64,000 nt of DNA from Streptomyces sp. 11x1 (GTDB taxonomy: Bacteria > Actinomycetota > Actinomycetes > Streptomycetales > Streptomycetaceae), in assembly GCF_032598905.1 (NCBI RefSeq), contig NZ_CP122458.1, positions 2,108,001 through 2,172,000 on the forward strand, given 5' to 3'. A program made the position numbers and the translations under genes. Positions 7,592 to 56,602 of the stretch are shown in pieces (the first letter of the stretch is position 1; every line of letters begins with the position of its first letter). Below the pieces are notes generated by a model. The model was given only the letters and a program-made list of their open reading frames with translations, had not been told where the DNA came from and did no database searches.

Positions 7592-8466
7592 GCGGCTACG
7601 ACTACGCCGGCAAGGTGATGCTGGTGACCGGCGGCGCGGGTGGCATCGGCAGCGCGCTGTGCCGGCGGTTCGCGATCGGCGGCGCGGTGTGCGTCGTCGT
7701 CGACATCGACGGTGAGCGCGCGCGGCGGGTCGCGGACACCCTGCCCGGCGCCGGTCACCTGGGCCTCGGCTGCGACCTGCTGGACCGGGCCGGGGTCGCG
7801 GACCTCTTCGAACAGGTCGCCGCCGCCTTCGGCCGCCTCGATGTGCTGGTCAACAACGTCGGCATGACCAGCACCGAGCGGTTCGACGTGCGCCCGGTGG
7901 AGACCATCGAGCGGGAGATCGACCTCAACATGATCTCCCCGCTGGTGGCCACCCGGCTGGCCATTCCCCTGCTGAAGGCCTCCGCCGATCCCCGCGTCGT
8001 CACCACGGTGTCCCTCGCCGGCATCTTCCCCCAGGGGGAGACTCCGATCTACGCGGCGTCGAAGTTCGGGCTGCGCGGCGCGATGCTGTCCATCGCCCTC
8101 GACCTGGGCGCCAAGGGCATTCGCGTCGGCTCGGTGCTGCCGTCGGCCACCGACACCCCGATGCTGCGCCGGGAGGCCGTCGACGGCGGCAACTCCCTGC
8201 AGTTCCAGGACCCGCCGCAGCAGCCGTCCGACGTCGTCGCCGCGGTGGTGAGCCTGCTCGACCGGCCGCGGCTCGAGGCGTATCCACGCGTCGGCGAGGC
8301 GCTCCTGGTCCGCTTCTCCATGCTGGTGCCGAACCTTCTCCCCAGCCTTCTCCCGCTCTTCCGCAAGCGCGGCGAACGCGGCCTTGCCCGGTACCTGGAG
8401 GACCTGCGGCGCAGAGGACTGGCCCGGCAGGTCGACGGCCGCTGGGAACTGGTGCAGGAGGCATGA
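7588..8466 (+). CDS. Short-chain dehydrogenase/reductase
   Basis: A 292-residue classical SDR using NAD(P)H. The cofactor motif TGGAGGIG is near residues 14-21, NNVG near 91, and the catalytic Ser and YAASK near 142-160. Asp-Ile-Asp after beta-2 (VVVDIDGERA) suggests NAD preference. The C-terminal 45 residues after the SDR core (LLPSLLPLFRKRGERG) are longer than usual and amphipathic, suggesting membrane association, as in SDRs paired with FMO-type enzymes (inference). It is translationally coupled to both neighbours (ATGA overlaps at 7588 and 8463). A role in alcohol-ketone interconversion in the pathway served by the monooxygenase is likely. Confidence 0.92.
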   Translation: MSGYDYAGKVMLVTGGAGGIGSALCRRFAIGGAVCVVVDIDGERARRVADTLPGAGHLGLGCDLLDRAGVADLFEQVAAAFGRLDVLVNNVGMTSTERFDVRPVETIEREIDLNMISPLVATRLAIPLLKASADPRVVTTVSLAGIFPQGETPIYAASKFGLRGAMLSIALDLGAKGIRVGSVLPSATDTPMLRREAVDGGNSLQFQDPPQQPSDVVAAVVSLLDRPRLEAYPRVGEALLVRFSMLVPNLLPSLLPLFRKRGERGLARYLEDLRRRGLARQVDGRWELVQEA

Positions 8467-9926
8467 CCATGAACACCGACACGAACGCCGACATGAACAC
8501 CGACACGAACACCCGCCCGGACGACCGCCTGCTCACCGTCATCAACCCGGCCACCGGGGAGATCCTCGACACCCTGCCCGCCGCCACCGCGGGCGAGGTG
8601 GACACGGCCGTGGACCAGGCGCACCGCGTCTTCGACAGCGGGGTGTGGGCGGCTCGGCCGCCCCGGGAGCGGGCCGCGGTCCTGCTGCGCCTCGCCGAGC
8701 TGATGGAACGCGATGCCGAGATCCTGGCCCGCCTGGACTGCGAGGACGCGGGCAAACCCATCACGGAGTGCCGTACCGGCGATGTGCCGGGCGCGATCGA
8801 GTCGATCCGCTGGTTCGCGGAGGCGGCCGACAAGGTCTTCGGCCGCACCGCCCCCACCAGCCACGACCACCTGGGTCTGATGAGCCGGGAACCCGTCGGA
8901 GCGGTCGCCGCCGTCCTCCCCTGGAACTACCCGCTCGCCATGGCCGCCTGGAAGATCGGGCCCGCGCTCGCCGCGGGCAACAGCCTGCTGCTCAAGCCTG
9001 CCGAGGCGACCCCGCGTTCGGCCCTCCACGTGGCCCGGCTGGCGACGGAGGCGGGGCTGCCGGACGGCACCCTCGCCGTGCTGCCCGGCTACGGCGCGGA
9101 AGCCGGCCGGGCGCTCGCCCGCCACCCCGGGATCGGCACGCTCTCGTTCACCGGCTCGACGGCGACCGGACGGCGGATCCTGGCCGACGCCGCGGAGACC
9201 AACTTCAAGCGGGTCTCCCTGGAGATGGGCGGCAAGAGCCCCCAGGTGCTGATGCCGGACGCGCTCGATTTCGGCGTCGACCTCATCGACGACATGATCG
9301 AAGCCGCGTTCCTGACGATGGGACAGAACTGCACGGCCGGCTCCCGGATCCTGGTCCACGAGGACATCGCCTCCGAGGTCGTCGCACGGTTCACGGCCGC
9401 CGCCGGGGCCCTGGTCATCGGCGACCCGGCCAAGCCGGACACCCGCACGGGTCCGCTGATCAGCACTGCGGCGCGAGACCGGGTCGCCCGCGCCGTGGAC
9501 GAGGCGGTCGCCGCCGGAGCCGTGGCCCACACCGCCGGGTTGCCGGCGGGCCTGCACCCGCACGGGGCGTACTACCCACCCACCGTCGTCGTCGGCGCCC
9601 CCGACGGCAGCGGGGTCCTCACCGAGGAACTGTTCGGCCCCGTGGTCACCGTCCAGACCTTCGCCTCCGAGCGGGAGGCGATCCGGACGGCGAACGCCAC
9701 CCCCTACGGCCTTGCCGCCTCACTGTGGACCCACGACCTCGACACCGCCTTCCGCCTCGCCCGCGGCATCCAGGCCGGAGTGGTCTCCGTCAACTCCTAC
9801 AGCGAGGGCGACATCACCGCCCCCTTCGGTGGCTGGAAACAGTCCGGATTCGGCGGGGCGGAGCGGTCCACCGACGCCTTCGCGCAGTGGACAAGGGAGA
9901 AGACCGTCTGGATCCGTACCCGCTAG
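8463..9926 (+). CDS. NAD(P)-dependent aldehyde dehydrogenase
   Basis: A 487-residue aldehyde dehydrogenase oxidising an aldehyde to its acid. Visible motifs: the catalytic-glutamate region SLEMGGKSP (about 253-262), the catalytic cysteine in MGQNCTAGS (about 286-294), the cofactor motif FTGSTATGR, and PWNYP near 155. The C-terminus GGWKQSGFGG is the standard family ending. The first 17 residues are a low-complexity Asn-Thr-Asp repeat (NTDTNADMNTDTNT) that aldehyde dehydrogenases normally lack. ATG 8463 overlaps the SDR stop; ATG 8469 is an equally possible start. Last gene of the three-gene operon. Confidence 0.95.
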   Translation: MTMNTDTNADMNTDTNTRPDDRLLTVINPATGEILDTLPAATAGEVDTAVDQAHRVFDSGVWAARPPRERAAVLLRLAELMERDAEILARLDCEDAGKPITECRTGDVPGAIESIRWFAEAADKVFGRTAPTSHDHLGLMSREPVGAVAAVLPWNYPLAMAAWKIGPALAAGNSLLLKPAEATPRSALHVARLATEAGLPDGTLAVLPGYGAEAGRALARHPGIGTLSFTGSTATGRRILADAAETNFKRVSLEMGGKSPQVLMPDALDFGVDLIDDMIEAAFLTMGQNCTAGSRILVHEDIASEVVARFTAAAGALVIGDPAKPDTRTGPLISTAARDRVARAVDEAVAAGAVAHTAGLPAGLHPHGAYYPPTVVVGAPDGSGVLTEELFGPVVTVQTFASEREAIRTANATPYGLAASLWTHDLDTAFRLARGIQAGVVSVNSYSEGDITAPFGGWKQSGFGGAERSTDAFAQWTREKTVWIRTR

Positions 9927-9987
9927 CGCGGCCGAAACCGGACGCAGATGCCTAAGGTGGTCGCGAGTACGGCCCTGGAGAGAAGCC

Positions 9988-11094
9988 ATGACCGAGGCAA
10001 CCCGTCCGGAGAACGGCACCACCCGTAGCACGTCGGCGACGATCTCCCCGAACATTCTGCGCTATCTGGACCAGATCACCGAGGAGTACGGAGTCGACCT
10101 ACAGCCGGAACTGTCCCAGGTCGGTCTCACCGAGACCCTGATGCGCTCGGCGGCCCTGCGCGTCTCCTACCGCCAGGGCAGTGCCGTCATCCGGCGCGCT
10201 GTCGAACTCACCGGGGACGAGAACCTGGGCCTGCGGGTCGGAGCCGCGCAGCACCTCACCGCCTGGGGTCTGGTGGGCTTCGCCATGCTCGCCAGCGACA
10301 CCCTCCAGGTCGCGATCGAGGCGGGGGTCCGCTTCCAGAACGTGTCCGGGGCGATGACGGTCTGGTCGGCGGGCCGGGAGGGCTCCGACTACGTGATCCG
10401 GGCCGACCTCCCGGACCCGATGATCGACCCGAACGTCGCCGTCTTCCTCGTCGAGGAGGCGTTTTCGAGCGTCGTCACCCTCGGCCGCCTCGCCGCCGAC
10501 GCCGACCTCGCACCCCAGGAGGTCCACTTCGCCTTCGCCGCCCCGCGCGACGTCCAGCCCTTCCGCGACCTCTTCCGCTGCCCCCTGCACTTCGGCGCCT
10601 CCCACAACCGGCTGGTGGTACCGCAGGCATGGATCAACCGGCCGATGCCGGGCCGCGATCCGGTCACCTACGCCGCGACCCTCGAACTCCTCGAAGGGCA
10701 GATGGCCTCCCGCCGTCGTCAGCAGGACCTGCTGGAGATCCTGGAGATCTCCGTCGCGCAGAGCCTCCCGTTCGTCCCCTCCTTCTCCGAGCAGGCCCGC
10801 CGACACGCGTCGAGCGAGCGGACGCTGCGCCGCCGCCTGGCCGACTGCGGCACCTCCTACGAGGCGATCGTCGAGGGCGTCCGCCGGGAGCGCGTCGAAC
10901 TGCTCCTGCACCGCCCTCACCTCACCCTCCGCGAGGTGGCCCGCCAGGCGGGCTTCTCCGACGAACGCGCCCTGCGCCGGGCCGTCCGCCGCTGGCACGG
11001 CATGGCACCGTTGCAGCTGCGCGCGGGCCTCTCTTCGCAGACGGCGGGAACAACGCCGAGTCAGGGGCGCGGCGAACCACGCGACCAGCCGTAA
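9988..11094 (+). CDS. AraC-family transcriptional regulator (AraC-binding-like N domain)
   Basis: A 368-residue regulator. Residues about 25-215 match the arabinose-operon-regulator N-terminal domain (PF12625-like) found in regulators beside oxidative catabolic operons: ALRVSYRQGSAVIRRAVELTG, then LGLRVGAAQHLTAWGLVGFA. The C-terminal AraC DNA-binding domain (about 255-345) has two helix-turn-helices, including LTLREVARQAGFSDERALRR. It lies 61 bp behind the monooxygenase operon on the same strand and is the obvious candidate to control it. A decayed fragment of a paralogue lies at 31098-31266. Confidence 0.9.
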   Translation: MTEATRPENGTTRSTSATISPNILRYLDQITEEYGVDLQPELSQVGLTETLMRSAALRVSYRQGSAVIRRAVELTGDENLGLRVGAAQHLTAWGLVGFAMLASDTLQVAIEAGVRFQNVSGAMTVWSAGREGSDYVIRADLPDPMIDPNVAVFLVEEAFSSVVTLGRLAADADLAPQEVHFAFAAPRDVQPFRDLFRCPLHFGASHNRLVVPQAWINRPMPGRDPVTYAATLELLEGQMASRRRQQDLLEILEISVAQSLPFVPSFSEQARRHASSERTLRRRLADCGTSYEAIVEGVRRERVELLLHRPHLTLREVARQAGFSDERALRRAVRRWHGMAPLQLRAGLSSQTAGTTPSQGRGEPRDQP

Positions 11095-45639: not shown

Positions 45640-45714
45640 GAGCGGGGCTTCCCATGCGTAATGCTGGGAGGTCCCGCGCTTCACTCCACAGCCGCTGGCA
45701 CGGGAGGGCATCGG

Positions 45715-46680
45715 GTGGTCAAGACAGTGAAGTCGCTGTTCGGCGAACGGACGATCGCCTTCGAGACCTGGGGCGATCCGGACGCACACCCGGTGTTTCT
45801 GCTGCACGGAACTCCCGGAAGCCGACTCGGGCCCCGACTGCGCACCTTCGACCTGCACAAGCTCGGGGTGCGCCTCATCGCGTACGACCGACCGGGGTAC
45901 GGCGGTTCCGACCGTCATGAGCATCGCAGAGTGGTCCACGCCGCCGAGGACGTCGCGGCGATCGCCGAGAAACTGGATCTCAAGAAGTACTCGGTGGTGG
46001 GTAGATCGGGCGGCGCTCCCCACGCCCTGGCCTGCGCGGCCCGGAACATCGGCAGCCAGGTGGCGAGTGTCGCCGCGTTGGTCTCGCTCGCTCCGCCGAA
46101 GCCCGACAACGAGGACGACAGCCCGGGTGACGCTGCCACCGACGGACTCGACTGGCCCGAGTGGCACAGGGACATGTCCGAGTCCAATGTGTCGACCTAC
46201 GAGCTGCTGCGGCGCCACGCACCCGATGTGACCGAGCTGGGTGCACTGCTGGCCCGCAACGCCGAGACCATCCGGCGCGACCCCACCGTGTTCCTCGCCT
46301 CCCTCCGCGGCGAGATGCCGAGCGTGGACCGGGTGATCGTCGAGGACGCCGGGATCCGCCAGGCCCTCCTCAGGAACTACCTGTCGGCGGTGGGCGAGGG
46401 GGAGGCTGTCGACCCCCGCGCGCCGATGGGCTGGGTGGACGACCTGGTCGCGTTCCAGCGGCCCTGGGGCTTCGATCTCAAGGACATCGACCGTTCCGTG
46501 CCCGTGATGCTGTGGCACGGCGAACACGACGTCTTCGCCCCCGTCGCCCATTTCCACTGGCTGGCCAAGAAGATCCCCTCGGCCACGCCCAAGTTGCAGC
46601 CCTCCGCGGCGCACTTCGCGGCGCTGCCCGCCCTGCCCCAGGTGCTGGCCTGGGCCCGGGACGAGGCCGGGCCCTCCTAG
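45715..46680 (+). CDS. Alpha/beta hydrolase
   Basis: A 321-residue hydrolase. The oxyanion region is VFLLHGTPGSRLGPRL (about 26-41), YDRPGYGGSD follows (about 59), the nucleophile elbow is VVGRSGGAPHALACA (Ser about 97), the acid lies in LWHGEHDVFAPVAHF (Asp about 283) and the catalytic His near PSAAHFAALP (about 308). GTG 45715 was chosen because GGGAGGG precedes it; ATG 45661 lacks a ribosome site. It converges with the fxs operon, whose last gene ends 24 bp away. Confidence 0.9.
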   Translation: MVKTVKSLFGERTIAFETWGDPDAHPVFLLHGTPGSRLGPRLRTFDLHKLGVRLIAYDRPGYGGSDRHEHRRVVHAAEDVAAIAEKLDLKKYSVVGRSGGAPHALACAARNIGSQVASVAALVSLAPPKPDNEDDSPGDAATDGLDWPEWHRDMSESNVSTYELLRRHAPDVTELGALLARNAETIRRDPTVFLASLRGEMPSVDRVIVEDAGIRQALLRNYLSAVGEGEAVDPRAPMGWVDDLVAFQRPWGFDLKDIDRSVPVMLWHGEHDVFAPVAHFHWLAKKIPSATPKLQPSAAHFAALPALPQVLAWARDEAGPS

Positions 46681-46704
46681 GGCCTGTCGCGCCCGCCCCG
46701 CGGG

Positions 46705-49700
46705 TCAGATCGGGTGCGGCTCCAGGTCGAGACAGCTGAGTTTCCAGTCCTTCAGGGCCACCACCCGGGGGTGATCCCTGCCGATGCGCTTGCTGAGCGC
46801 GGCCAGCGCGTCGTGATGGGTGGTGCGGGCCTTCTCCGCCTGGCCCAGATGGCTGAGGACGACGGCGAGGTTCCCGGCACAGGTCAAGGTCGACGGGTGC
46901 AGCGGGTCGAGAACCTCCTTGAGCATCTCGAACGACGCGACGCTGATCCCGCGGGCCTCGTCCCAGCGGCCGAGCGCCGCCTCGGCGACGGCCAGGTTCG
47001 CGTGGCAGATGAGCGCGAACGGGTGGTCCGCGCCGTTGAGTTCGGTGAACCTGGACTGGGCCGCGCGGAGCAACTCCCGTGCCTCGGTGGCGGCTTCCGG
47101 GTGGATGGACCCGATGTCGTGGAGGAGCAGCACCGCGTGGTTGACCGAGCAGGCCACCGTGTGGGAATGGCCTTCCCCCAGCTTGTCCCTCAGGTTCTCC
47201 TGGACCCTGCGGATCAGGTCGAGTCCTTCGTCGACCCGGCCCTGGGCGGCCATGTCACCGGCCAGGCTCATCTCCAGCAGCAGTTCCTCCGAGGTCGACT
47301 TCTCACCGTCCGGCGTGCTTCTGAGCACGTGCCGTACGAGCTCCTCGGCCTCCGCCGCCCGGCCCGCCCTGCGCAGGGAACCGGCCAGCCCCTTGGCCGT
47401 GTTCAGCACGGTCGGAGAGCCCTGGGTGAGACGGGGATTGCGCAGACAGCGCTCGTAGGCGCGCCTGAGCAGCGCGACGGACTCGTCGTAGTCACCGCAG
47501 TCACGCAGGTCACGGCCGAGGTTCACCGCCGACTCGATGGTCAGAGGGTGGTCGTGGAGCTGGATCGCCTCGCGGAGTTCCAGTGTTCTGCGGTCGAGAT
47601 CGCGGGCCCGGTAGTAGTTGCCGGAGAGCCGCAGGGCGACGGCGAGGTTGTTGGCCGCGCTGAGCGTGCGCGCGTTGTCCTCGCCGTAGTTCTGGTCGTA
47701 TCTGCGGTAGGTCTCCTCGTCGTACTGCAGGGCCTCGGTCAGGCGGCCCAGGCCGCGCAGGTCGGCGGCGATGCTGCTGGTGGTCATCAGGATGTGCTGG
47801 TCGTCGATGTCGTCCAGCACCTCCAGCTGCCGCTCCAGCACCTCCTGGTCCAGGGCGAGGGACTCCTCGTACTTGCCCTGGGCGCGCAGGATGTTGGCGA
47901 CCTGGAAGCGCATGTGCAGCGTCCAGCGTTCGTCGGGCGACTCCTCCGCCGACCAGGCGGCCACCCGCCGCAGGCTGTAGTCCATGGCCTGACTCAGCTC
48001 GCCCCGGCGGCGCAGCTGACGGACCCGGTCCACATAGAGTTCCTTGATGCCCTCGTCGGGGGCCATCTCGGCCCAGGGGGTGCCGAGGTGGGGCCAGATG
48101 ATGCGGTACTTCTCCCAGGTGTTGGGGTTCTCCGGGTCGTCCCCGCTCGGCCGGGCGGCGATCAGTGAGCGGTAGACGACCTCCTGTGCCGCGTCGCGCT
48201 CCTCGGCGGTCATCGCCTCCCGCATCGCGCTCTGCATCATCCGGTGCACCGTCACGCTCCGGGCCTTGCGGTCCAGCGTGACCAGGGAGAACTTGCTGAG
48301 TTCCTTGTAGGCGCGGGAGACCGTGCGCACCCCGCCCAGGGCGCGGGAGACCTCGTAGCCCTCCAGGAGATCCATGGAGATCTCCTCGGGGCTGTAGTAC
48401 GAGCAGATCTGCAGCAGCTTCACCGCCGGCGGGAAGCTCTCCCGCAGCTGCCTCAGGCCGAACTCCCAGGTGTTGGTACCGGACTTGACGACCGCGCCCA
48501 CCGAGTTGTCGTCGGGGGCTCCGGTGGCCTGCGGCTGGAGCTTCTTGATGTAGTCGCGTACGTCGGCCCGGGTCTGCTCGATGAAGGCCGCGGCCCGTTC
48601 GATCGCGATCGGCAGGTCGCCCAGGGCCTCCGCGATCTGGTCGGCCTCCGTCCAGCCGCAGTCGGGCAGCCGGCTGTGCAGGTGGGCGATGCTCTCGTTC
48701 CGCTCGAACACCGGGATGTCCACGGTTTCCACGAACCGTCCCCAGCCCTCGGCGCGCTGACTGGTGACCAGGATGTGGCCTCTGCGGCCGTCCATCATGT
48801 ACTCGGGCAGGTGGTCCGCCTCCGGGACGTTGTCCAGGATCAGCAGCCAACTGTCGTACCGGTCACCGTGGTTGAGGGCCTCGTACACCATCTTGGCCGT
48901 GTCGGTGGGGTTGGTACGCGCGGGCAGGCCCAGCGCCTCGGCCATGCCCGCGTACTGCTCGACGGCCAGGATCTTCTGCTCGGCCTGGATGTGCCAGACC
49001 ACGTCGTAGTCGCTCTTGTAGCGCTTGGCGAACTCCTCGGCCAGCAGGGTCTTCCCCACCCCGCCCATGCCCTTCAGCACCAGCGCCCGGGTGTCGCCCT
49101 TCCAGAGCTTCTCCCGGATGCTCTCCAGGATTTCCGTACGACCCGTGAAGGACGACGTGCGCAGCGGGACGCCGAAGACCGAGGGCTCGGTCTTCGGGAA
49201 GCGGGGCAGTTTCGGCTCGTCGCCGGTGAAGTGGCTGCGTGACAGGGAATCGGCGCTCCGGCCGAACCAGGTCAGCAGAGCGTCACGACCCTCCTCACCG
49301 TCCTCGCAGCCCGTCATGTCGGCGAGCTGCTCCGTGAAGGGGGCCTCCAGGGACACCTGGTCGTCGACCTGCATCGAGACCAGCTGGTGCGCCCGCCGGT
49401 CGCTCTCCGCGTAGACCGCCTCCCAGGTGGTGCGGAAACGGGACGACCTGAGATAGGCCTCGGAGAAGATGACCAGGGTGTGCGAGGCCGACTCGACGCC
49501 CCGTTCGATCTCCTCCCGCACCTGTGAGCTCTCCGTGGTGCCTTCCTGCGCCAGGTGGACCTTGAAGCCCGCCTGCTCCAGCACGGCACCCGCCCAGTTG
49601 GCCCAACTGCGGTCCTGCGGGACGAAGCTGACGTACACGTCGGAGATCCGCGGCGGGCGGTGGCGGGTGTACCGGTCGAGGGTCTTGTGGCGCAGCGACT

Positions 49701-50694
49701 CGTCGATGCGGGGCATCGACTCGACCTGGCCGTCGGTGATGACCTCGGTGAGTCTCTCGTAGGCCGCGAGCAGGCTCTTGGGGTCCCCAGGCTTCTCCCT
49801 GAACGGGGCGAGGGTCTCCTCGTAGGAGTAGATGGGCCGGTAGGGGATCTCCACGCTCCCCCAGTAGCTCTCCGGGTCCCGGTCGGGGATGTGCTTGCGC
49901 ACGATGCGGTCGAAGCGGTACTGGATCTGTCCCCGGGCGGCGTCGAGCCGGTCGGCCTCGGCGTTCTCCACCCGCATGGGGACGGGCAGGATGCGGATGT
50001 CCCGGTTGCCGTACAGCATTCCGTCGATGCGCTCGGCGACCCCGGCGGCGCCCTCGATGCTCTGGCTGCTCGGGGTGAAGCAGGTGACCACGGTGTGCGG
50101 CAGATTGACCGTGCAGATGTCGGAGATGTCGTTGAGTCCGGTGCGGCTGTCGATCAGGACGTAGTCGAAGTTCTCGACGAACTCGCGCTTGAGCCCCTCC
50201 AGGAACCTGGTGGCCAGGGGCCCGTCCATGAAGTCCTTCCAGTCGAACTGGGAGAACGCCGAGAGATAGCCCTTGTTCTTGGTGCCCGCCGGCATGTAGT
50301 AGAGCTGACCGCCCGAGGGGAAGTTCCAGTCGACCTGGATGAGGCAGCTGTTGAGGGTGATCCCGTCGGCCGTCTCCAGGTCGGACGCGCTCGCGTAGTC
50401 GGAACCCAGCTCGAACTGCGGGAAGGTCTCGCCCCTGCTCTGCATCGAGCGCGCGAACTGGGTGGATCTGCTGACCAGTTCGAGCACACCCGGCGTGGTC
50501 CGCAGCTGACTGTCGCTCAGGAAGGGGTGCAGGAAACGGTCCAGACCGGGGGCGTCGAGGTCCCAGTCGACCACCAGGACGCGATTGCCCGCCGAGGAGA
50601 GGATCCAGGCCGTGTTGGCGAGCGCCATCGTCCGCCCCGTACCGCCCTTGTACGAGTAGAACGTGATGATCCTGCGCGCGTCCTCGCCGGTCAT
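46705..50694 (-). CDS. fxsT: FxSxx-COOH system ParA-like/TIR/NB-ARC/TPR protein
   Basis: A 1329-residue multidomain protein. Residues 1-230 are a MinD/ParA-like ATPase with the deviant Walker A YKGGTGRTMALANTAWIL (about 15-32). A TIR domain spans about 348-480 (ISDVYVSFVPQDRSWANWAG). An NB-ARC/STAND module follows (P-loop GMGGVGKTLLAEEF near 540-553, Walker B SWLLILDNVPEAD near 615). The last 400 residues are tetratricopeptide repeats. This architecture is the tetratricopeptide component of the FxSxx-COOH system. The TIR loop corresponding to the catalytic WCxxE motif reads RFRTTWEA, so the glutamate is missing and it is probably a scaffold. It overlaps the fxsC stop by 4 bp. Confidence 0.9.
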   Translation of the reverse strand: MTGEDARRIITFYSYKGGTGRTMALANTAWILSSAGNRVLVVDWDLDAPGLDRFLHPFLSDSQLRTTPGVLELVSRSTQFARSMQSRGETFPQFELGSDYASASDLETADGITLNSCLIQVDWNFPSGGQLYYMPAGTKNKGYLSAFSQFDWKDFMDGPLATRFLEGLKREFVENFDYVLIDSRTGLNDISDICTVNLPHTVVTCFTPSSQSIEGAAGVAERIDGMLYGNRDIRILPVPMRVENAEADRLDAARGQIQYRFDRIVRKHIPDRDPESYWGSVEIPYRPIYSYEETLAPFREKPGDPKSLLAAYERLTEVITDGQVESMPRIDESLRHKTLDRYTRHRPPRISDVYVSFVPQDRSWANWAGAVLEQAGFKVHLAQEGTTESSQVREEIERGVESASHTLVIFSEAYLRSSRFRTTWEAVYAESDRRAHQLVSMQVDDQVSLEAPFTEQLADMTGCEDGEEGRDALLTWFGRSADSLSRSHFTGDEPKLPRFPKTEPSVFGVPLRTSSFTGRTEILESIREKLWKGDTRALVLKGMGGVGKTLLAEEFAKRYKSDYDVVWHIQAEQKILAVEQYAGMAEALGLPARTNPTDTAKMVYEALNHGDRYDSWLLILDNVPEADHLPEYMMDGRRGHILVTSQRAEGWGRFVETVDIPVFERNESIAHLHSRLPDCGWTEADQIAEALGDLPIAIERAAAFIEQTRADVRDYIKKLQPQATGAPDDNSVGAVVKSGTNTWEFGLRQLRESFPPAVKLLQICSYYSPEEISMDLLEGYEVSRALGGVRTVSRAYKELSKFSLVTLDRKARSVTVHRMMQSAMREAMTAEERDAAQEVVYRSLIAARPSGDDPENPNTWEKYRIIWPHLGTPWAEMAPDEGIKELYVDRVRQLRRRGELSQAMDYSLRRVAAWSAEESPDERWTLHMRFQVANILRAQGKYEESLALDQEVLERQLEVLDDIDDQHILMTTSSIAADLRGLGRLTEALQYDEETYRRYDQNYGEDNARTLSAANNLAVALRLSGNYYRARDLDRRTLELREAIQLHDHPLTIESAVNLGRDLRDCGDYDESVALLRRAYERCLRNPRLTQGSPTVLNTAKGLAGSLRRAGRAAEAEELVRHVLRSTPDGEKSTSEELLLEMSLAGDMAAQGRVDEGLDLIRRVQENLRDKLGEGHSHTVACSVNHAVLLLHDIGSIHPEAATEARELLRAAQSRFTELNGADHPFALICHANLAVAEAALGRWDEARGISVASFEMLKEVLDPLHPSTLTCAGNLAVVLSHLGQAEKARTTHHDALAALSKRIGRDHPRVVALKDWKLSCLDLEPHPI

Positions 50695-51944
50695 GGCCTG
50701 CCCTCCACGCGACTGTCACCCCGGGGTAATTGTGAGTGAATGTACCGCAAGTACCGGATCTTGGTTGCCTCGGCCAGTTCGCCGAACCACCGGGTGAAGA
50801 CATCCGCCCCGGCCAGCCCCCGTACGGCTTCCTGCTCCCCCACCCGGCCCTCGCTGATGAACCGGGGGAAGTTGGCCGCCAGCAGCCCACGCAGCCGGTC
50901 GGACTGCTCCTTCGTCTGGAGGTCGTCCCCCGCCAGAGTACTCAGCACCGCTGTCCACGGACGCCGGGCCCGGTCGAACTCCCTTGCCTCGCGAGCCATT
51001 TGGGAGTTCTCCAACGCCCAGGGGTCCACCACCAGGATCCATGGGGCGGTGGGGAGTTCGGTGTCCTGAAGCTCCGTCTGGAACTTGTCGAAGGGCTTCA
51101 CGGTGGGCTCGAAGCCCAGGTTGCGGGCCAGCGCCTCCAGCAGTTCGACCAGAGGTCCCACGGCCGGGCCGTAGGGGCGCCAGTCGTCCACCCGCGGACC
51201 GTAGCGCGTGCTGTCGCGGCCGACCGGTAGTCCCTCCTCGGCCGGGGCGAGCACGGTGATGTGCAGCGGAGAGGCGAAGGGCGGATCGGCGAACGCGTCG
51301 TCCAGGCCCGCCAGCGTCTCCGGCTGCGGCGCCCTCCCCGCGCCGCCCGCCGGCCGCGGCCGGGTGGGCCCCGTGGCCGCCAGGTCGACGATGCGCTGGG
51401 CCAGCCAGTCGGTCACCTGGGCGACCTGGGCGGAGACCCGGTCCGCCGCGCCCTCGTCCTCCGGGTCCGGCCGCTCGGACAGCTCGAGCACCTGGTGGAG
51501 CAGCTGGTGCAGCCCCATGGACTCGTAGTTCTCGGCTGCCTCGCCGATGCCGTCCGGCACCTGCGGGTACTGCTCCTTGACCTTCTTCGGCAGCGACGTG
51601 GGCGAGTACGGCGTCCACAGCACCGGCACGATGCTCGGCCGGCCCTCCGGGGTGGCCCCCTGGGTGACGGCGGTCCACTGCCGGCCGCACTGGGGATTGC
51701 TGAAGTACCTCTTGGAGTACAGCGGAACGAAGACCTGGCAGTCGAGAAGCGCCTGGACCGACTTCTCCCCCGGCGTCCCCGGCCGTTCTACGAAACCGGC
51801 CTCCTCCCGCGTCACTCTCGCGCGCCGCGCCACTTTGCCGCACAGTTCGTCGAAGAACTGGAAGACCAGACGATTCGGATCCTGTGAGGCGTCCCGGTGT
51901 CGGGGAACAGGAACCCGCGCATAGCTCATGAAGAACATCGGCAT
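50691..51944 (-). CDS. fxsC: TIR-like protein FxsC
   Basis: A 417-residue protein: an N-terminal TIR-like domain (about 1-180, FFMSYARVPVPRHRDASQDP, then VFVPLYSKRYFSNPQCGRQW) and a C-terminal FxsC-specific domain (about 220-410, HITVLAPAEEGLPVGRDSTR and PWILVVDPWALEN). Where NAD-cleaving TIRs have WCxxE, this has QCGRQ: the glutamate is Gln, so enzymatic NADase activity is unlikely. ATG 51944 is followed by in-frame ATGs at codons 3 and 6. It lies 4 bp behind the small TIR gene and overlaps fxsT, so translation is coupled. Confidence 0.92.
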   Translation of the reverse strand: MPMFFMSYARVPVPRHRDASQDPNRLVFQFFDELCGKVARRARVTREEAGFVERPGTPGEKSVQALLDCQVFVPLYSKRYFSNPQCGRQWTAVTQGATPEGRPSIVPVLWTPYSPTSLPKKVKEQYPQVPDGIGEAAENYESMGLHQLLHQVLELSERPDPEDEGAADRVSAQVAQVTDWLAQRIVDLAATGPTRPRPAGGAGRAPQPETLAGLDDAFADPPFASPLHITVLAPAEEGLPVGRDSTRYGPRVDDWRPYGPAVGPLVELLEALARNLGFEPTVKPFDKFQTELQDTELPTAPWILVVDPWALENSQMAREAREFDRARRPWTAVLSTLAGDDLQTKEQSDRLRGLLAANFPRFISEGRVGEQEAVRGLAGADVFTRWFGELAEATKIRYLRYIHSQLPRGDSRVEGRP

Positions 51945-51948
51945 CCTG

Positions 51949-52605
51949 CTACTCCCCCTCGAAGACGTTCCGGAGGTCTTTGAACAGCTCCGTGTCGCAC
52001 GGTTCCAGGCTGGTCTGCTGGGCCACCTTGACGATCATCTGGGCGAGCGCCCACACAGAACTGCGGTACTTGGCGTGGCGGCCCGCCTGCTTCAGTCCGT
52101 AGAGGCCCGACTGCAGGTAGTCCTTACCCAGAACGGGGTGGGCGTACTGCACCTTCGCCGCGACCGGCGGCAGTGTCAGATGCTGCTGTCCCACCCAGAG
52201 GACGGGAATGATCGCGTTGCCCGTGTACGGCCGGGTCCGAAGCTGTTCCTCCTGACGCCGGGCGAAGGCGTCCCATTCCTTTCCGCACCATTCCCTCTTG
52301 AAGTACCGACTGGTGTAGATGGGCACGAAGACCCGGCAGGTGGCCAGGGCGTGTTTGAGTCTGCTCTGCCAGTCCTCGCCGAGATCGATGCTCTGGTCGA
52401 GGAATCCCGGCGATTCCTCGCCATCGTGATCCGTCAGCTGCATGATGTCGCTGCATAAGTGGGCGTGAAACTGCTCCAGAGCCATGTCCGACGGGTCTTT
52501 CTTCGCCCTCGTGCCCGTTATCGGCAACCGTGCGTAACTCATGAAGAACACGTACGGATCGGAGGAATCCGACGCCGGTGTCACCTGAGAAGCCGGATGA
52601 ATCAT
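51949..52605 (-). CDS. Stand-alone TIR-domain protein of the fxs operon
   Basis: A 218-residue protein that is mostly one TIR domain (about 18-175): YVFFMSYARLPITGTRAKKD, QSRLKHALATCRVFVPIYTS, and RYFKREWCGKEWDAFARRQE. It closely parallels the N-terminal part of FxsC and probably arose by duplication, but here the canonical WCxxE motif (WCGKE) is intact, so NADase activity is conceivable (inference). ATG 52605 lies 181 bp downstream of the fxsB stop; the next gene starts 4 bp past its stop. The C-terminal 40 residues (SLEPCDTELFKDLRNVFEGE) are not TIR. Confidence 0.9.
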   Translation of the reverse strand: MIHPASQVTPASDSSDPYVFFMSYARLPITGTRAKKDPSDMALEQFHAHLCSDIMQLTDHDGEESPGFLDQSIDLGEDWQSRLKHALATCRVFVPIYTSRYFKREWCGKEWDAFARRQEEQLRTRPYTGNAIIPVLWVGQQHLTLPPVAAKVQYAHPVLGKDYLQSGLYGLKQAGRHAKYRSSVWALAQMIVKVAQQTSLEPCDTELFKDLRNVFEGE

Positions 52606-52786
52606 GGACTCGCCTTTCCCCTCCCCCGTCGCCCACCTCGGGTCTCCCCGCCCCGAGCATCACAGCTGAATCTCCTCCAGGATCCATTGGAACGCGAAAC
52701 CCGCTGTGGGTGCCAGGGGTCGGCCCGAGCAAGTTGTACCGGACACCCGTGCCAAACCCGTGCCGAAAAGGGGAGTTGACCGGAGG
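52606..52786. other. Gap within the fxs operon
   Basis: A 181-bp spacer, the only real gap in the operon. It contains a direct repeat GGCACGGGT (minus strand, twice, 2 bp apart) and may hold a promoter for the three TIR/STAND genes. No second precursor peptide with a C-terminal FxSxx is encoded in either strand. Confidence 0.4.
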
Positions 52787-55315
52787 TCAGACGGCGATCG
52801 GGCCGGATTCGGCCACTCCGCCCAAGCTCTCGGCCTCGCCCCGGAGCCCACGCACGAACCGGTGTCCCAGGGCGGTCAGGGAGCCGGTTCCGGCCACCGT
52901 GTCGAGGGCGTCCAGTACCGCCGTGCGCCACTTGTCCGCCTCGACGCGGGAGCGTTCGTACAGGGCCGGGCCGACCCCGGCCACACCGCGGCGGACCCTG
53001 AGCCGCCAGATGTCGGCGACCGCGAGGTGGGCATACGCGCCCTGCACGATGGCGTCGAGGGGCCGGGCGTCGGGACGCCACAGCACGCGGTAGCGGCGGT
53101 CGTCGAGACCGTCGAGCAGGTCGAACATGTCGAGCATCGCGCCCAGTTTGACGTGCTGGTACTCGTGGACGATCAGCATGGCCAGATCCTCGGCCGAACG
53201 GGGCAGCGCGATGCCGACCGCCCCGAAGGCGTGCCGGGAGGTGGCGCTGACGTCGTCACCGGACGCGGCCGGCACGAGCGGGGTCACCGTGGTCAGCCCG
53301 GCGGCTATCCCCTGCGCGTACTCGGGGTACTCGGTCCTGATCAACTGCCAGGCCTCCCCGAACATCGTCTCCCACCGTCGGAATTCGGCCTCGGACAGCC
53401 GGGGCAGGGGCTTGTAGCCGTAGCAGTCACGGGAGGGGTCGAGGTCGTCGAGGGCCACTTCCAGTCCGTCGGCGGACAGATGGCGCAGGGGCTGCCAGCG
53501 CATCCCGTCGGGGGGCAGTTCCTGGCCCAGGGTCCGTCCTTCGACGGTGAGCGCGGTGTCGGCGGCCGTCACGGTGAGCGTTCCGGAGGGGCGACGACGA
53601 CTGTCGGCACCCAGCGACAGCCGCCCCAGCCCCGGGAGATGGATCGCCGACCCCTCGGGCTCGTGCCGCAGCGGGACGGACAGGGTCAGCCGACCGCCGG
53701 CGCGCGCGACGGCCGACAGCGCGGCCTCCGCCGGCCGCCCCTCGGCCCGCCGACGCACCGGCTGCCCGCACGCGAGGGCCCACACGCGCAGGTACGGGTC
53801 GGCCAGCAGGACGTCCAGCGCGGCTGCGGGCAGGGCCAGGATCGCCTCCCAGCCGGGTCCCGAGTCGACCGGATCGCCGATTCCCGGGCCCGCACCCGCA
53901 CCCGCAGCCATGCCTGCGGTCCCGTCCACACCCGCAACCACGCCCGCATCCGCCGGAGTCGGCCCGGCGGTCAGTCCCGGGCGGGAGCGGGTGCCGGGGG
54001 CCGGCCCTCGGCCGGGAGCCATGGCCCGGCCCGGATCCGGACCCTGGGTGTCCGCGCGGCGGGCCGCCGCCAGCAGTGCCCTGCGCTGGCTGTTCTGGGC
54101 CGCCGCCAGGGAGCGGACGGCCGCCGCGCCGCCGTATCCGGCGGCCAGTTCGTCGAAGTGGGTCCAGGACAGGCCGTGCCAGCCGTGGCGGACGTCGGCG
54201 TCGTTGCGCTCCGTGGCCTGGACGTACTCGATGATCTTCAGCAGGTCGGCGCAGTAGACGGAGGGGTTGTCGAACCCGTTGGAGGCGCGGTGGCGGTGTC
54301 CGTAGAGGCCGCCGCCGCAGACCGAGACGACGGGGCAGGCGCGGCACTGTGCGCTCAGTCCGTCCAGCCCGGCGCGGCGGGCCTGGATGCCCCGGTGCTC
54401 GGCGGCCTCCTCCAAGCGGTGGGTGGCGAGGTGCATGCCGGTCGCCGGGGCTCCCGGGTAGGCCGTCTTCAGCCAGTCCGCCTGTTCGAGGGCACCGTCG
54501 GTCTCGATCACGAGCAGGTCCGAACTGCCCAGTCCCAGTGCCTCGGTGAGGCTGCCACGGCCCCGGGTCAGCCGGCCGATGGACTCGAACATGCGGATGC
54601 GCATCGGCATGCCGTCGGCGATCCACCGCTTGTGCACGGCGATCAGCCAGTCCGCGTAGTCGGTCTCGCCGCCGGGGCGGGGTGGCGGGAACTCCCAGGT
54701 GGCGTGCGGCAGCAGGAAGTCCACAGCCGGCGGGCGGAGTTCGGCCAGCGCCCGGTACACCTCCACCGGGTCGTTCTCGACGTCGATGGTGCAGAGCAGT
54801 CCGCCGAAGGCTGCTCGGTGGGGCGGTGTGCCGAGGAGACGTACGGCGCGGACCGCATCACGGTAGGAGCCGGAGCCGTCCCGTCTGATCCGGTGGCGGT
54901 CGTTGGACGCCTCGTCGCCGTCGAGCGAGATGCTGGTGACGATGGACTCGTCGACGAGCATCGCGCAGAACTCGTCGTCCAGGCGGAGGCCGTTGGTCTG
55001 CATGCGCAGGTCGAGTTCGGCCACGCCGTGCAGCGCCGAGCGGAGCGAGCGGGCGAAGCCGCGCAGTCGTTCCCGGCCGGCGAGCAGGGGCTCACCGCCG
55101 TGCAGGACGACGTGCACCCGGGTGAGCCGGTGCGCGGCCGCGTGCTCGGCGATCCGCCCGGCCACATGACGGAACGTTTCGTCGGACATCGTCACCGGAC
55201 GCCCGCGCCAGCTCTGGTCGGCGTGCTGGTAGACGTAGCAGTGGTCACAGGCCAGATCGCAACGGCTGTGCACCTTGATCACAAACTGGCGGAAGGGCCG
55301 CGCCGCCACCGTCAC
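52787..55315 (-). CDS. fxsB: FxsB: radical SAM/SPASM enzyme fused to HExxH domain
   Basis: An 842-residue fusion. Residues about 10-230 are a radical SAM core with the iron-sulfur motif CDLACDHC (Cys19, 23, 26) and HGGEPLL. A SPASM-type cysteine region follows (QCRACPVVSVCGGGLYGHR, about 335). After a Pro/Gly/Ala-rich linker (about 440-500) comes an HExxH domain with HEYQH at 717-721 and the family signature LWRPDARPLDAIVQGAYAHL. Stand-alone HExxH-motif proteins in peptide clusters have been linked to iron/2-oxoglutarate-dependent beta-hydroxylation. So one polypeptide may install two modifications on the FxsA peptide. GTG 55315 lies 33 bp past fxsA. Confidence 0.93.
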   Translation of the reverse strand: MTVAARPFRQFVIKVHSRCDLACDHCYVYQHADQSWRGRPVTMSDETFRHVAGRIAEHAAAHRLTRVHVVLHGGEPLLAGRERLRGFARSLRSALHGVAELDLRMQTNGLRLDDEFCAMLVDESIVTSISLDGDEASNDRHRIRRDGSGSYRDAVRAVRLLGTPPHRAAFGGLLCTIDVENDPVEVYRALAELRPPAVDFLLPHATWEFPPPRPGGETDYADWLIAVHKRWIADGMPMRIRMFESIGRLTRGRGSLTEALGLGSSDLLVIETDGALEQADWLKTAYPGAPATGMHLATHRLEEAAEHRGIQARRAGLDGLSAQCRACPVVSVCGGGLYGHRHRASNGFDNPSVYCADLLKIIEYVQATERNDADVRHGWHGLSWTHFDELAAGYGGAAAVRSLAAAQNSQRRALLAAARRADTQGPDPGRAMAPGRGPAPGTRSRPGLTAGPTPADAGVVAGVDGTAGMAAGAGAGPGIGDPVDSGPGWEAILALPAAALDVLLADPYLRVWALACGQPVRRRAEGRPAEAALSAVARAGGRLTLSVPLRHEPEGSAIHLPGLGRLSLGADSRRRPSGTLTVTAADTALTVEGRTLGQELPPDGMRWQPLRHLSADGLEVALDDLDPSRDCYGYKPLPRLSEAEFRRWETMFGEAWQLIRTEYPEYAQGIAAGLTTVTPLVPAASGDDVSATSRHAFGAVGIALPRSAEDLAMLIVHEYQHVKLGAMLDMFDLLDGLDDRRYRVLWRPDARPLDAIVQGAYAHLAVADIWRLRVRRGVAGVGPALYERSRVEADKWRTAVLDALDTVAGTGSLTALGHRFVRGLRGEAESLGGVAESGPIAV

Positions 55316-55348
55316 CGGTACGATCCCTCGTCGTTCCGGCCAGGCCGG

Positions 55349-55504
55349 TCAGAGCGACGACTGGAAGGCGGCCACCGGCTCTCCGCCACCTGCGAGCATC
55401 CTTGCCATGGCGGACTCCTGCGCGGACTCGGGCACCTCGTCCAGTGAGGTGTCGTGCAGGTCCCTGACCACGCTCGTGGCGAAGGGCTGCTCGTACCTGT
55501 CCAT
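55349..55504 (-). CDS. fxsA: FxSxx-COOH precursor peptide
   Basis: A 51-residue peptide, MDRYEQPFATSVVRDLHDTS followed by LDEVPESAQESAMARMLAGG and ending GEPVAAFQSSL. The last five residues, FQSSL, fit the F-x-S-x-x-COOH rule that names the family, and the position immediately ahead of fxsB is diagnostic. ATG 55504 has GAGGAG upstream. The N-terminal 40 residues would act as leader, the C-terminal FxSxx segment as core (inference). The DNA upstream contains no second copy. Confidence 0.9.
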   Translation of the reverse strand: MDRYEQPFATSVVRDLHDTSLDEVPESAQESAMARMLAGGGEPVAAFQSSL

Positions 55505-55625
55505 AGGCGTCGTCTCCTCGGGCGTACGGCTCCGGGCGGCACACCTCATAGTGACGGCCCGGTAACCGAACAGCAAGGCGATCGCAAGCCAAGTCCGCTG
55601 ACCGGCGGGAAGTCGTTCGCCGACC

Positions 55626-55661
55626 GGCGAGGGGGCCTTCGTGATGAGAGGCGCCCTCGCC
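55626..55661 (-). terminator. Hairpin between the ABC operon and fxsA
   Basis: GGCGAGGGGGCCT and AGGCGCCCTCGCC pair over 12 of 13 positions with a 10-nt loop. It lies 41 bp past the stop of the upstream ATPase gene, so it probably separates the sugar-importer transcript from the fxs operon. Confidence 0.55.
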
Positions 55662-55702
55662 ATGTCGTCGGCCGCGTGGCCGCTCACGAGGAGCGGCCGG
55701 GG

Positions 55703-56602
55703 TCAGGCAGCCCCGTCCTTCGAGGAGCCCGCGGGTGCGGTGAGATCGTCCTCCTCGGGAAGCTCTTCGACGTCGACGCCGCGGACTTGGGCCAACTCGT
55801 GCTTGAGCGCGGCCAGTTCGGTGCCGCCCGCCATGTGGTTGGTGAGTTCCTCCAGGCTGACCCGGTCGCGGGGGGCGCTCAGTTCGAGGGTGCCCAGGCG
55901 CAGGACGCTGAAGTGGTCGCCGACCATGTAGGCGTGGTGGGGGTTGTGGGTGATGAAGATGACGCCGAGGCCGCGGTCGCGGGCGGCGGCGATGTACTTC
56001 AGCACCACACCGGACTGCTTGACCCCGAGCGCGGCGGTGGGCTCGTCCAGGATGAGGACGCGGGCACCGAAGTAGACGGCGCGGGCGATGGCCACGCACT
56101 GGCGCTGACCGCCGGAGAGGGTGCCGATGGGCTGGTCGAGGTCGTCCAGGACTATGCCCATGTTCCGCAGTTCCTCGTCCGCGGTCTTCTTCATCTTCTC
56201 GATGTCGAGGCGGCGGATCGGCCAGGGGCCCTTGGTGAACTCGGAGCCGAGGAAGAAGTTGCGCCAGACCGGCATCAGGGGCACGGTCGCCAGGTCCTGG
56301 TAGACGGTGGCGATGCCGGCGTCCAGGGCCTCGCGCGGGGTGGTGAACCGCACCGGGTTCCCGTCGACGAGGACCTCGCCCTCGGTGTGCTGGTGCAGAC
56401 CGGAGATGATCTTGATCAGGGTGGACTTGCCGGCACCGTTGTCGCCCAGGACGCAGGTGACGCGGCCGGGGTGGACGGCGAGGTTCACCCCGTGCAGGGC
56501 GCGGACGTTGCCGTAGGCCTTGCCGGTGTCGCGCAGTTCGACCACGGGCGACTGGTCGTCGGCCGCCGCTTCGGGGGTGCTGGTGGTGTTGCTGGTGGTC
56601 AT
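55703..56602 (-). CDS. Sugar ABC transporter ATP-binding protein (single-ATPase FrcA type)
   Basis: A 299-residue ATPase. Walker A is [16 protein letters not shown] (about 53-68), the signature [19 protein letters not shown] (about 165-183), Walker [13 protein letters not shown] (about 185-196) and the switch His ITHN. Only one nucleotide-binding domain is present, whereas RbsA/XylG-type proteins have two; the fructose/inositol importer ATPases (FrcA-like) are single. ATG 56602 follows GGAGGTG. Last gene of a three-gene importer operon reading leftward from the divergent region near 58.9 kb. Confidence 0.92.

What the first reader, a model, noticed from the sequence alone, without database searches (positions are those of the whole stretch)
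46705..55504. Complete five-gene FxSxx-COOH system joining peptide modification to TIR/STAND modules
In order of transcription: a 51-aa precursor ending FQSSL, a radical SAM/SPASM-HExxH fusion, a stand-alone TIR protein, FxsC and a giant ParA-like/TIR/NB-ARC/TPR protein. The last three genes are spaced by 4 bp or overlap by 4 bp. Components of the family were defined by comparative genomics, but its function is not established to my knowledge. The combination suggests a modified C-terminal peptide sensed by, or controlling, a TIR/STAND complex, for example in phage defence, self-recognition or development. That role is inference.
Basis: partly seen in the sequence, partly recalled or inferred. 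Interest (0 to 1): 0.92.

Follow-up and report, generated by a model that had tools for sequence, protein, structure and literature searches.

The report
Peptide-linked TIR/STAND operon, six genes
This soil-bacterium operon, which probably makes a chemically cross-linked peptide next to immune-like TIR and STAND proteins, belongs to a known but unexplained system; comparing many genomes adds an overlooked sixth gene and points to one TIR protein as the likely active enzyme.

Summary
A related enzyme, MscB, joins Phe C4 to Ser Cbeta. New here: (1) a sixth gene, a convergent alpha/beta-hydrolase (45661-46680 +), follows the STAND gene in 60 of 63 fused-FxsB loci with room and 0 of 20 unfused ones; in 246 Streptomyces genomes 88 of 90 strong hits lie within 9 kb of an FxsC locus, and 83 of 83 genomes holding it have one. 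(2) In FxsB-bearing loci with a stand-alone TIR, that TIR keeps the Cys..Glu motif in 37 of 37 and FxsC in 0 of 37; without it FxsC keeps the motif in 43 of 47. Here Glu110 (TIR) faces Gln89 (FxsC). (3) One locus at the same site lacks fxsA, fxsB, the hydrolase and most of fxsC, yet keeps TIR and STAND open. Best reading: a self-made cyclophane peptide licenses an NLR-like executor with one NADase. Function is inferred, not shown.

The parts
55349..55504 (-). fxsA, 51-aa precursor; C-terminal FQSSL encoded at 55352-55366
   Evidence: TIGR04268 43.3 bits, cut-off 28; alignment with 11 related loci
52787..55315 (-). fxsB, 842 aa: radical SAM/SPASM (residues 8-366) fused to an aKG-HExxH beta-hydroxylase domain (residues 653-824, HEYQH intact)
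   Evidence: TIGR04269 572.9 and TIGR04267 158.6 bits; PDB ChlB 9gm3 244 bits and 22nu 219.5 bits (alignment of the HExxH half); CX3CX2C and HEYQH present
51949..52605 (-). stand-alone TIR protein, 218 aa; putative catalytic Glu110 (codon 52276-52278)
50691..51944 (-). fxsC, 417 aa: TIR-like N-domain with Gln89 (codon 51678-51680) at the Glu position, plus a C-terminal domain with a receiver-like predicted fold
46705..50694 (-). STAND protein, 1329 aa: KGGVGR ParA-like (KGGTGRT), degenerate TIR (Thr at the Glu position by a weak alignment), NB-ARC (GMGGVGKT), TPR
   Evidence: NF040586 804.1, NF047398 138.1 bits; Pfam TIR_2, NB-ARC, TPR_12
45661..46680 (+). sixth component: convergent alpha/beta-hydrolase, 339 aa, 24 bp tail-to-tail from the STAND gene; Ser116, Asp290, His318
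   Evidence: PF00561 61.5 bits; no NCBIfam model reaches its cut-off; linkage; triad
52606..52786 (-). fxsB-TIR intergenic stretch with a conserved DNA element; possible internal promoter or operator, role unknown
   Evidence: alignment of 12 loci
55505..55584 (-). conserved non-coding stretch upstream of fxsA, probable promoter region (inference)
   Evidence: alignment of 12 loci, L071 the least alike; no sigma-70-like consensus match

Best explanation
A six-gene intracellular system coupling a self-made RiPP to an NLR-like executor. FxsB's radical SAM domain links Phe to Ser in the C-terminal FQSSL of FxsA, and its aKG-HExxH domain beta-hydroxylates the product. Because the HExxH domain is not the protease it was once taken for, the dedicated alpha/beta-hydrolase is the best candidate to release, trim or destroy the modified peptide. 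The modified peptide is a ligand or licence read by the TPR/NB-ARC protein. On triggering, that protein assembles the TIR proteins: the stand-alone TIR (Glu110) is the NAD+-consuming enzyme, while FxsC (Gln89) and the TIR inside the STAND protein (Thr) are scaffold-like pseudo-TIRs. The likely outcome is NAD+ loss and arrest or death of the cell. Shown: gene content, motifs, conservation and linkage. Inferred: every functional step in this organism.
For: All family models met. FxsB chemistry known from a relative, MscB (passage; that IPR026335 equals TIGR04269 is recalled); the HExxH half aligns along 343 residues with a solved relative. In FxsB-bearing tandem loci the stand-alone TIR keeps Cys..Glu in 37 of 37 and FxsC in 0 of 37; in FxsB-bearing non-tandem loci FxsC keeps it in 43 of 47. 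Independent protein sample: Glu in 58 of 58 homologues of the stand-alone TIR, two of them of FxsC length. TIR inside the STAND protein: Glu in 2 of 46, gap in 24. Hydrolase linkage: 60 of 63 against 0 of 20; 88 of 90 strong hits near FxsC; the gene beyond it is not conserved (largest family 8 of 56, against 61 of 61 hydrolases in one family). A hydrolase of the weaker group sits beside an FxsB without FxsC or STAND in the stretch (L131). TIR and STAND persist where fxsA, fxsB, hydrolase and most of fxsC are gone (L109). No peptide exporter among the six neighbouring frames scanned: upstream lies an ABC importer.
Against: FxsC keeps Glu in two close Streptomyces homologues, P0083 and P0089, and in a Sphaerisporangium whose stand-alone TIR and FxsC appear to share a contig (judged by organism name and contig length). 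Five tandem loci without FxsB in the stretch (L099-L103, another architecture) keep the motif in both proteins. Micromonosporaceae-type tandem FxsC keep Glu and lose only the flanking Cys and Trp (20 of 37), so they cannot be called dead. L034 has only such a non-canonical TIR, and L049 and L051 have Asp and no canonical TIR. The Gln/His FxsC form one clade, so loss of Glu is essentially one event. L109 kept TIR and STAND without its own fxsA/fxsB, but that genome has other FxsC loci and hydrolases. No sensing, NADase or cleavage was measured. PADLOC gives only weak matches or candidate models (best PDC-M28B, 71.6 bits, on the ParA part).
Confidence: 0.4

Rival explanations
1. The modified peptide is an inhibitor (antidote-like): it holds the STAND/TIR complex silent, and interference with FxsB or the hydrolase releases it.
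For: Close coupling of all genes in one cluster; guard-type logic is common in STAND systems (recalled).
Against: L109 keeps open TIR and STAND frames without local fxsA, fxsB or hydrolase, though peptide from the other loci of that genome could act in trans.
Confidence: 0.2
2. The product is a secreted signal or natural product for development or competition; the TIR/STAND proteins are its receptor or self-immunity.
For: FxSxx peptides were proposed to be a toxin or an amplifying signal (section read); the system is widespread in Streptomyces (FxsC_Nterm model: 98 of 246 genomes at E up to 1e-20; 38 of 296 in the class sample at E up to 1e-12).
Against: No exporter among the six neighbouring frames scanned; patchy presence argues against a core developmental role.
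Confidence: 0.2
3. All TIR-like domains act as assembly modules without enzymatic activity; the output is another one, for example through the ParA-like or NB-ARC domains.
For: Two of the three TIR-like domains of the window lack the Glu; some single loci lack any canonical TIR (L049, L051, L034).
Against: Glu, Cys and Trp are invariant in 31 stand-alone TIRs of 27-100% identity to the window's, and Glu in 58 of 58 homologues; the FxsC motif is kept in 43 of 47 FxsB-bearing loci where it is the only FxsC-type TIR.
Confidence: 0.15
4. The alpha/beta-hydrolase is a mere neighbour kept by synteny.
For: It is on the opposite strand; its distance correlations with the other components (r 0.86 to 0.93) also reflect shared species history.
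Against: On the operon's own strand, yet still linked, in 12 of 88 cases (the three of these fetched lie within about 0.8 kb upstream of fxsA); absent from all 20 unfused-type loci; further flanks not conserved.
Confidence: 0.05

Closest known systems
FxSxx-COOH system (NCBIfam TIGR04268, TIGR04269, TIGR04276, NF040588, NF040586); stand-alone peptide-processing systems of Kaur et al. 2020, PMC7159879 (section 24 read, passages elsewhere; figures and supplements not seen)
   Same: Precursor, FxsB, FxsC and the AP-ATPase/TPR protein with a variant MinD/ParA domain
   Different: Extra stand-alone TIR; the convergent alpha/beta-hydrolase has no NCBIfam model over cut-off, and the paper's text passages tie alpha/beta-hydrolases to caspase-type and GAP1 systems, not to FxSxx; the paper took the HExxH domain for a peptidase
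Triceptides / three-residue cyclophane RiPPs, enzyme MscB (PMC11002830, passage) and ChlBH (PMC12636437, passages)
   Same: SPASM radical SAM enzyme, F-x-S motif; fused aKG-HExxH hydroxylase; PDB 9gm3 and 22nu match the two halves
   Different: Product of this operon not measured; here the enzyme sits with TIR/STAND genes
Plant TIR immune receptors (L6/L7, RUN1, RPS4/RRS1)
   Same: TIR fold; SxWCxxE motif with aligned Glu; paired TIRs with unequal roles (RPS4/RRS1 roles recalled)
   Different: Bacterial, TIRs on separate proteins, linked to a RiPP
Thoeris (ThsB/ThsA) and SPARTA (TIR-APAZ)
   Different: Thoeris ThcB4 model far below cut-off; no ThsA match for the five proteins scanned; no Argonaute-type match for them either

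Membership tests
FxSxx-COOH system | Short precursor ending F-x-S-x-x | tested here: met
   43.3 bits, cut-off 28; ends FQSSL
FxSxx-COOH system | FxsB radical SAM/SPASM over cut-off | tested here: met
   572.9 bits, cut-off 370
FxSxx-COOH system | FxsC with both domains | tested here: met
   178.1/130 and 212.1/55 bits
FxSxx-COOH system | FxSxx_TPR protein | tested here: met
   804.1 bits, cut-off 300
Triceptide RiPP | Cyclophane formed on the precursor | not testable with these tools
   Sequence-level match to ChlB (9gm3), 244 bits only
aKG-HExxH beta-hydroxylase | HExxH domain over cut-off with intact motif | tested here: met
   158.6 bits, cut-off 40; HEYQH; activity not testable
TIR NADase (stand-alone TIR) | TIR fold with catalytic Glu | tested here: met
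TIR NADase (stand-alone TIR) | NAD+ cleavage | not testable with these tools
   no assay
TIR NADase (FxsC of this window) | Catalytic Glu | tested here: not met
   Gln89
Thoeris | ThsB-type TIR with ThsA partner | tested here: not met
   ThcB4 28.5 bits against cut-off 220; ThsB 14 bits, no ThsA among five proteins
Validated anti-phage system | Protection against phage | not testable with these tools
   No phage data; PADLOC matches weak or to candidate models only

The most novel reading that the evidence does not exclude
A bacterial NLR-like system whose ligand is a self-made cross-linked peptide: made and hydroxylated by FxsB, processed by the dedicated alpha/beta-hydrolase (the missing protease or eraser), and read by a STAND protein that switches on a single live TIR NADase held among pseudo-TIRs.
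Probability: 0.3. Interest if true: 0.85.

Novelty: new variant of a known kind. Interest (0 to 1): 0.6.

Why it matters
FxSxx-COOH systems are common in Streptomyces (FxsC_Nterm over cut-off in 91 of 246 genomes) and I found no established purpose for them (paper searches listed under Tried and rejected). A sixth gene with a conserved catalytic triad gives a concrete candidate for the missing peptide-processing step, and one TIR as the probable enzyme gives a single-residue test. A self-made RiPP as input to an NLR-like machine would be a new signalling logic.

Tried and rejected
Thoeris or another catalogued defence system: weak matches or candidate models only. Phage-borne module: the stand-alone TIR finds no match at E up to 1e-5 in 50,697 phage records. 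Plasmid-borne: 10 records of the plasmid collection match FxsB at E up to 1e-60, in the radical SAM part, all under 60% identity, none covering 80% of the query, four of them annotated or placed as Rhizobium. Promoter: no sigma-70-like match in 46400-55800. A conserved small ORF in the fxsB-TIR gap: its frame is not kept in L071, so read as DNA-level conservation (by eye). Complementarity of the AAC(3)-like gene and HExxH loss: rejected, all four combinations occur. hhalign of the TIR inside the STAND protein to the stand-alone TIR gave low probability (1.9-9.3%); the Thr at the Glu position rests on that weak alignment and on the Pfam TIR_2 match. The fold of the FxsC C-domain was searched only as part of the whole model. 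Four chemistry papers are not held and are known only through other papers; [quoted passage not shown]

Literature on FxSxx, FxsB, FxsC, triceptides, cyclophanes and RiPP-TIR links. Beyond Kaur et al., I saw titles and abstract starts only, or passages where stated, and none of these named a biological function of the system or the hydrolase; two fungal papers that contain the word FxSxx were not opened. PMC10885120 (passages) shows a serine-esterase-type hydrolase acting as a RiPP protease (crocagin CgnD), of another fold superfamily (SGNH/GDSL): a loose precedent for the role proposed here.

Sampling limits: the 44 named loci come from patterns of the window's own FxsB. From the class and genus samples I fetched 40 and 20 stretches, chosen for tandem pairs and spread, not at random; 16 further stretches served the hydrolase question, one of them already held. 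Dropped before the 63 and 20: loci without a STAND gene carrying TPRs, and L024 and L055 for lack of room; L012, whose fxsB frame is broken, counts there as unfused. In one search I entered only FxsC_Nterm rows over cut-off (138) and hydrolase rows of 241 bits or more; weaker rows were left out. In one search only the 7997 candidates sharing most words were scored.
Full report
What is there. Five genes on the - strand between 46705 and 55504 encode, in order of transcription, FxsA, FxsB, a stand-alone TIR protein, FxsC and a ParA-like/TIR/NB-ARC/TPR protein. Each exceeds the curated NCBIfam cut-off of its family. Spacing is 33, 181 and 4 bp, then a 4-bp overlap. The window lies in a 10.67-Mb genome with four FxsB matches and five FxSxx_TPR matches over cut-off. 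The ten genome contigs matches above 80% identity in the best FxsB segment are all Streptomyces, led by Streptomyces sp. MNU76 (98%) and S. caniscabiei (95%).

Known status. Kaur et al. (PMC7159879, section 24 read) describe FxSxx peptide-processing systems, including stand-alone ones with an AP-ATPase carrying an inactive MinD/ParA-like domain, and propose a peptide toxin or signal. They take the HExxH domain for a peptidase. NCBIfam now calls it an aKG-HExxH beta-hydroxylase; a preprint passage (PMC12636437) reports such a domain, fused to a radical SAM enzyme, hydroxylating Asp and His once the cyclophane is in place. A review passage (PMC11002830) gives Phe C4-Ser Cbeta bond formation for MscB (IPR026335; its equivalence to TIGR04269 is recalled). 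In the window the HExxH half aligns with PDB 22nu over 343 residues, HExxH included, and the radical SAM half with ChlB, 9gm3, at 244 bits.

Loci compared. Two main architectures occur: tandem (stand-alone TIR plus FxsC) and single (FxsC alone). Of 67 fused FxsB entries, 61 have an upstream small ORF fitting the pattern I searched ([FWYL]-x-[STA]-x-x at the end); 60 of the 61 have F and 61 have S, so partly by selection.

One live TIR. The profile of 31 stand-alone TIRs places Glu110 on the Glu of the SKWCLME motif of L6/L7; the match to RUN1 reaches that position in the wild type (6o0w) but stops three short in the E100A chain (7s2z). Both models have TIRs as their best VIA matches; Foldseek support is modest. 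In 37 FxsB-bearing tandem loci the stand-alone TIR keeps Cys..Glu in 37 and FxsC in 0: 17 have Gln or His, 20 keep Glu but lose Cys and Trp. In 47 FxsB-bearing non-tandem loci FxsC keeps Cys..Glu in 43. In an independent protein sample the homologues of the stand-alone TIR have Glu in 58 of 58; FxsC homologues have Gln 58, His 3, Glu 35, gap 3 of 99. Against a clean rule: two close Streptomyces homologues (P0083, P0089) have Glu in FxsC; five tandem loci without FxsB in the stretch (L099-L103) keep the motif in both; L034, L049 and L051 lack any canonical TIR; and the tree, built without the catalytic column, puts all 18 Gln/His FxsC in one clade (support 0.977), so this is mainly one ancestral loss, largely kept since. 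The TIR inside the STAND protein has Glu in 2 of 46 loci and a gap in 24, on a weak alignment.

A sixth gene. The alpha/beta-hydrolase at 45661-46680 + ends 24 bp from the STAND stop codon. In loci with fused FxsB and room behind the STAND gene, a convergent homologue (within 3 kb) follows in 27 of 28 single and 33 of 35 tandem loci; it is absent from 20 of 20 unfused-type loci and from 6 of 7 loci without FxsB in the stretch; 55 of the 61 found end within 190 bp of the STAND gene's end. Of the three fused-type misses, L064 carries it elsewhere in the stretch and L035 and L037 have a second STAND gene there. Ser is kept in 60 of 61 (one gap), Asp and His in 61 of 61. In 246 Streptomyces genomes, 110 have a hit at E up to 1e-35; 90 hits exceed 411.15 bits, a threshold I set after seeing the scores. 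Of these, 88 lie within 9 kb of an FxsC_Nterm locus; of the other two, one lies on a short contig beside a STAND gene and one just beyond 9 kb. Of 83 genomes with it, 83 have an over-cut-off FxsC locus, which 91 of 246 have (expected overlap 30.7; hypergeometric 8e-57, ignoring relatedness). The converse is looser: 89 of 131 FxsC_Nterm loci have it within 9 kb (80 of 99 at 215 bits or more, 9 of 32 below). Sixteen hits of 363-411 bits lie near no FxsC locus; of eight of these fetched, seven show no system gene in the stretch and one (L131) is divergent to an FxsB without FxsC or STAND there. In 12 cases the gene is on the operon's own strand. The next gene beyond it is not conserved. This ties the hydrolase to the system, and, on the strength of L131 and L109 only, more to the FxsB half than to the TIR half.

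A natural partial locus. L109 has the same ABC importer beside it (92-95% identity) and keeps STAND (80%) and stand-alone TIR (71%, Glu kept), but tblastn shows no fxsA match and no fxsB or hydrolase match above 60 bits there, and a 54-aa frame resembling the start of FxsC (by eye) lies in the place of fxsC. The genome is a draft of about 1,010 contigs with other FxsC loci and hydrolases, so trans-acting peptide or an assembly fault cannot be excluded.

Mechanism. I favour a licensing-ligand model: a modified FxsA peptide, processed by the hydrolase, is read by the STAND protein, which assembles the TIRs around one NADase. Every functional step is inference. Antidote, secreted-signal and non-enzymatic readings remain open.

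Verdict. A genuine, conserved member of a known family in a tandem-TIR variant; the new content is the hydrolase, the unequal TIR pair and the partial locus.

Noticed in passing
L010, L029, L036, L050, L061, L064, L107 and others, between fxsB and the first TIR: A gene related to AAC(3) acetyltransferases (113-166 bits to AAC_3, all under the 270-bit cut-off in the seven scanned) lies between fxsB and the TIR/FxsC gene; such a gene is found in the stretch of 40 of 67 fused-FxsB entries. None was found for the window.
   Followed up: partly
L012 (G000:C1:5390000-5409900), 8244-10693: Own-genome paralogue with an FxsA ending AAFQSSL like the window's; its fxsB is split over two overlapping frames. 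Real break or sequence error not resolved; left as is.
   Followed up: no
L109 6076-11248: Natural partial locus: TIR and STAND without local fxsA, fxsB, hydrolase and most of fxsC.
   Followed up: partly
L072, L086, L091, L110, L113, L114: FxsC-type proteins in open frames of about 800 to 1570 aa, without a separate STAND gene or FxsB in the stretch.
   Followed up: no
L093, L097, L122: FxsC next to a ParA-like protein without NB-ARC/TPR or FxsB, suggesting that FxsC partners the ParA-like domain.
   Followed up: no
L099-L103: Another architecture without FxsB: three TIR-bearing genes, one fused to an NB-ARC-like part, beside a ParA-bearing gene (NB-ARC/TPR too where not cut off).
   Followed up: no
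L124-L130: Orphan homologues of the hydrolase (365-411 bits) with no FxsB, FxsC or STAND hit in the stretch.
   Followed up: partly
L010, L029, L043, L061, L064-L069 and others: HExxH motif absent in 21 of 67 fused FxsB entries; the one such FxsB scanned (L131) passes the NCBIfam 'lost HExxH' model.
   Followed up: partly
window 52606-52786 and about 55505-55584: Two conserved non-coding elements, in the fxsB-TIR gap and upstream of fxsA, in an alignment of 12 loci.
   Followed up: partly
window 51949-52605: Databases name close homologues of the stand-alone TIR 'TIR-like protein FxsC', presumably because the FxsC_Nterm model matches both proteins.
   Followed up: yes
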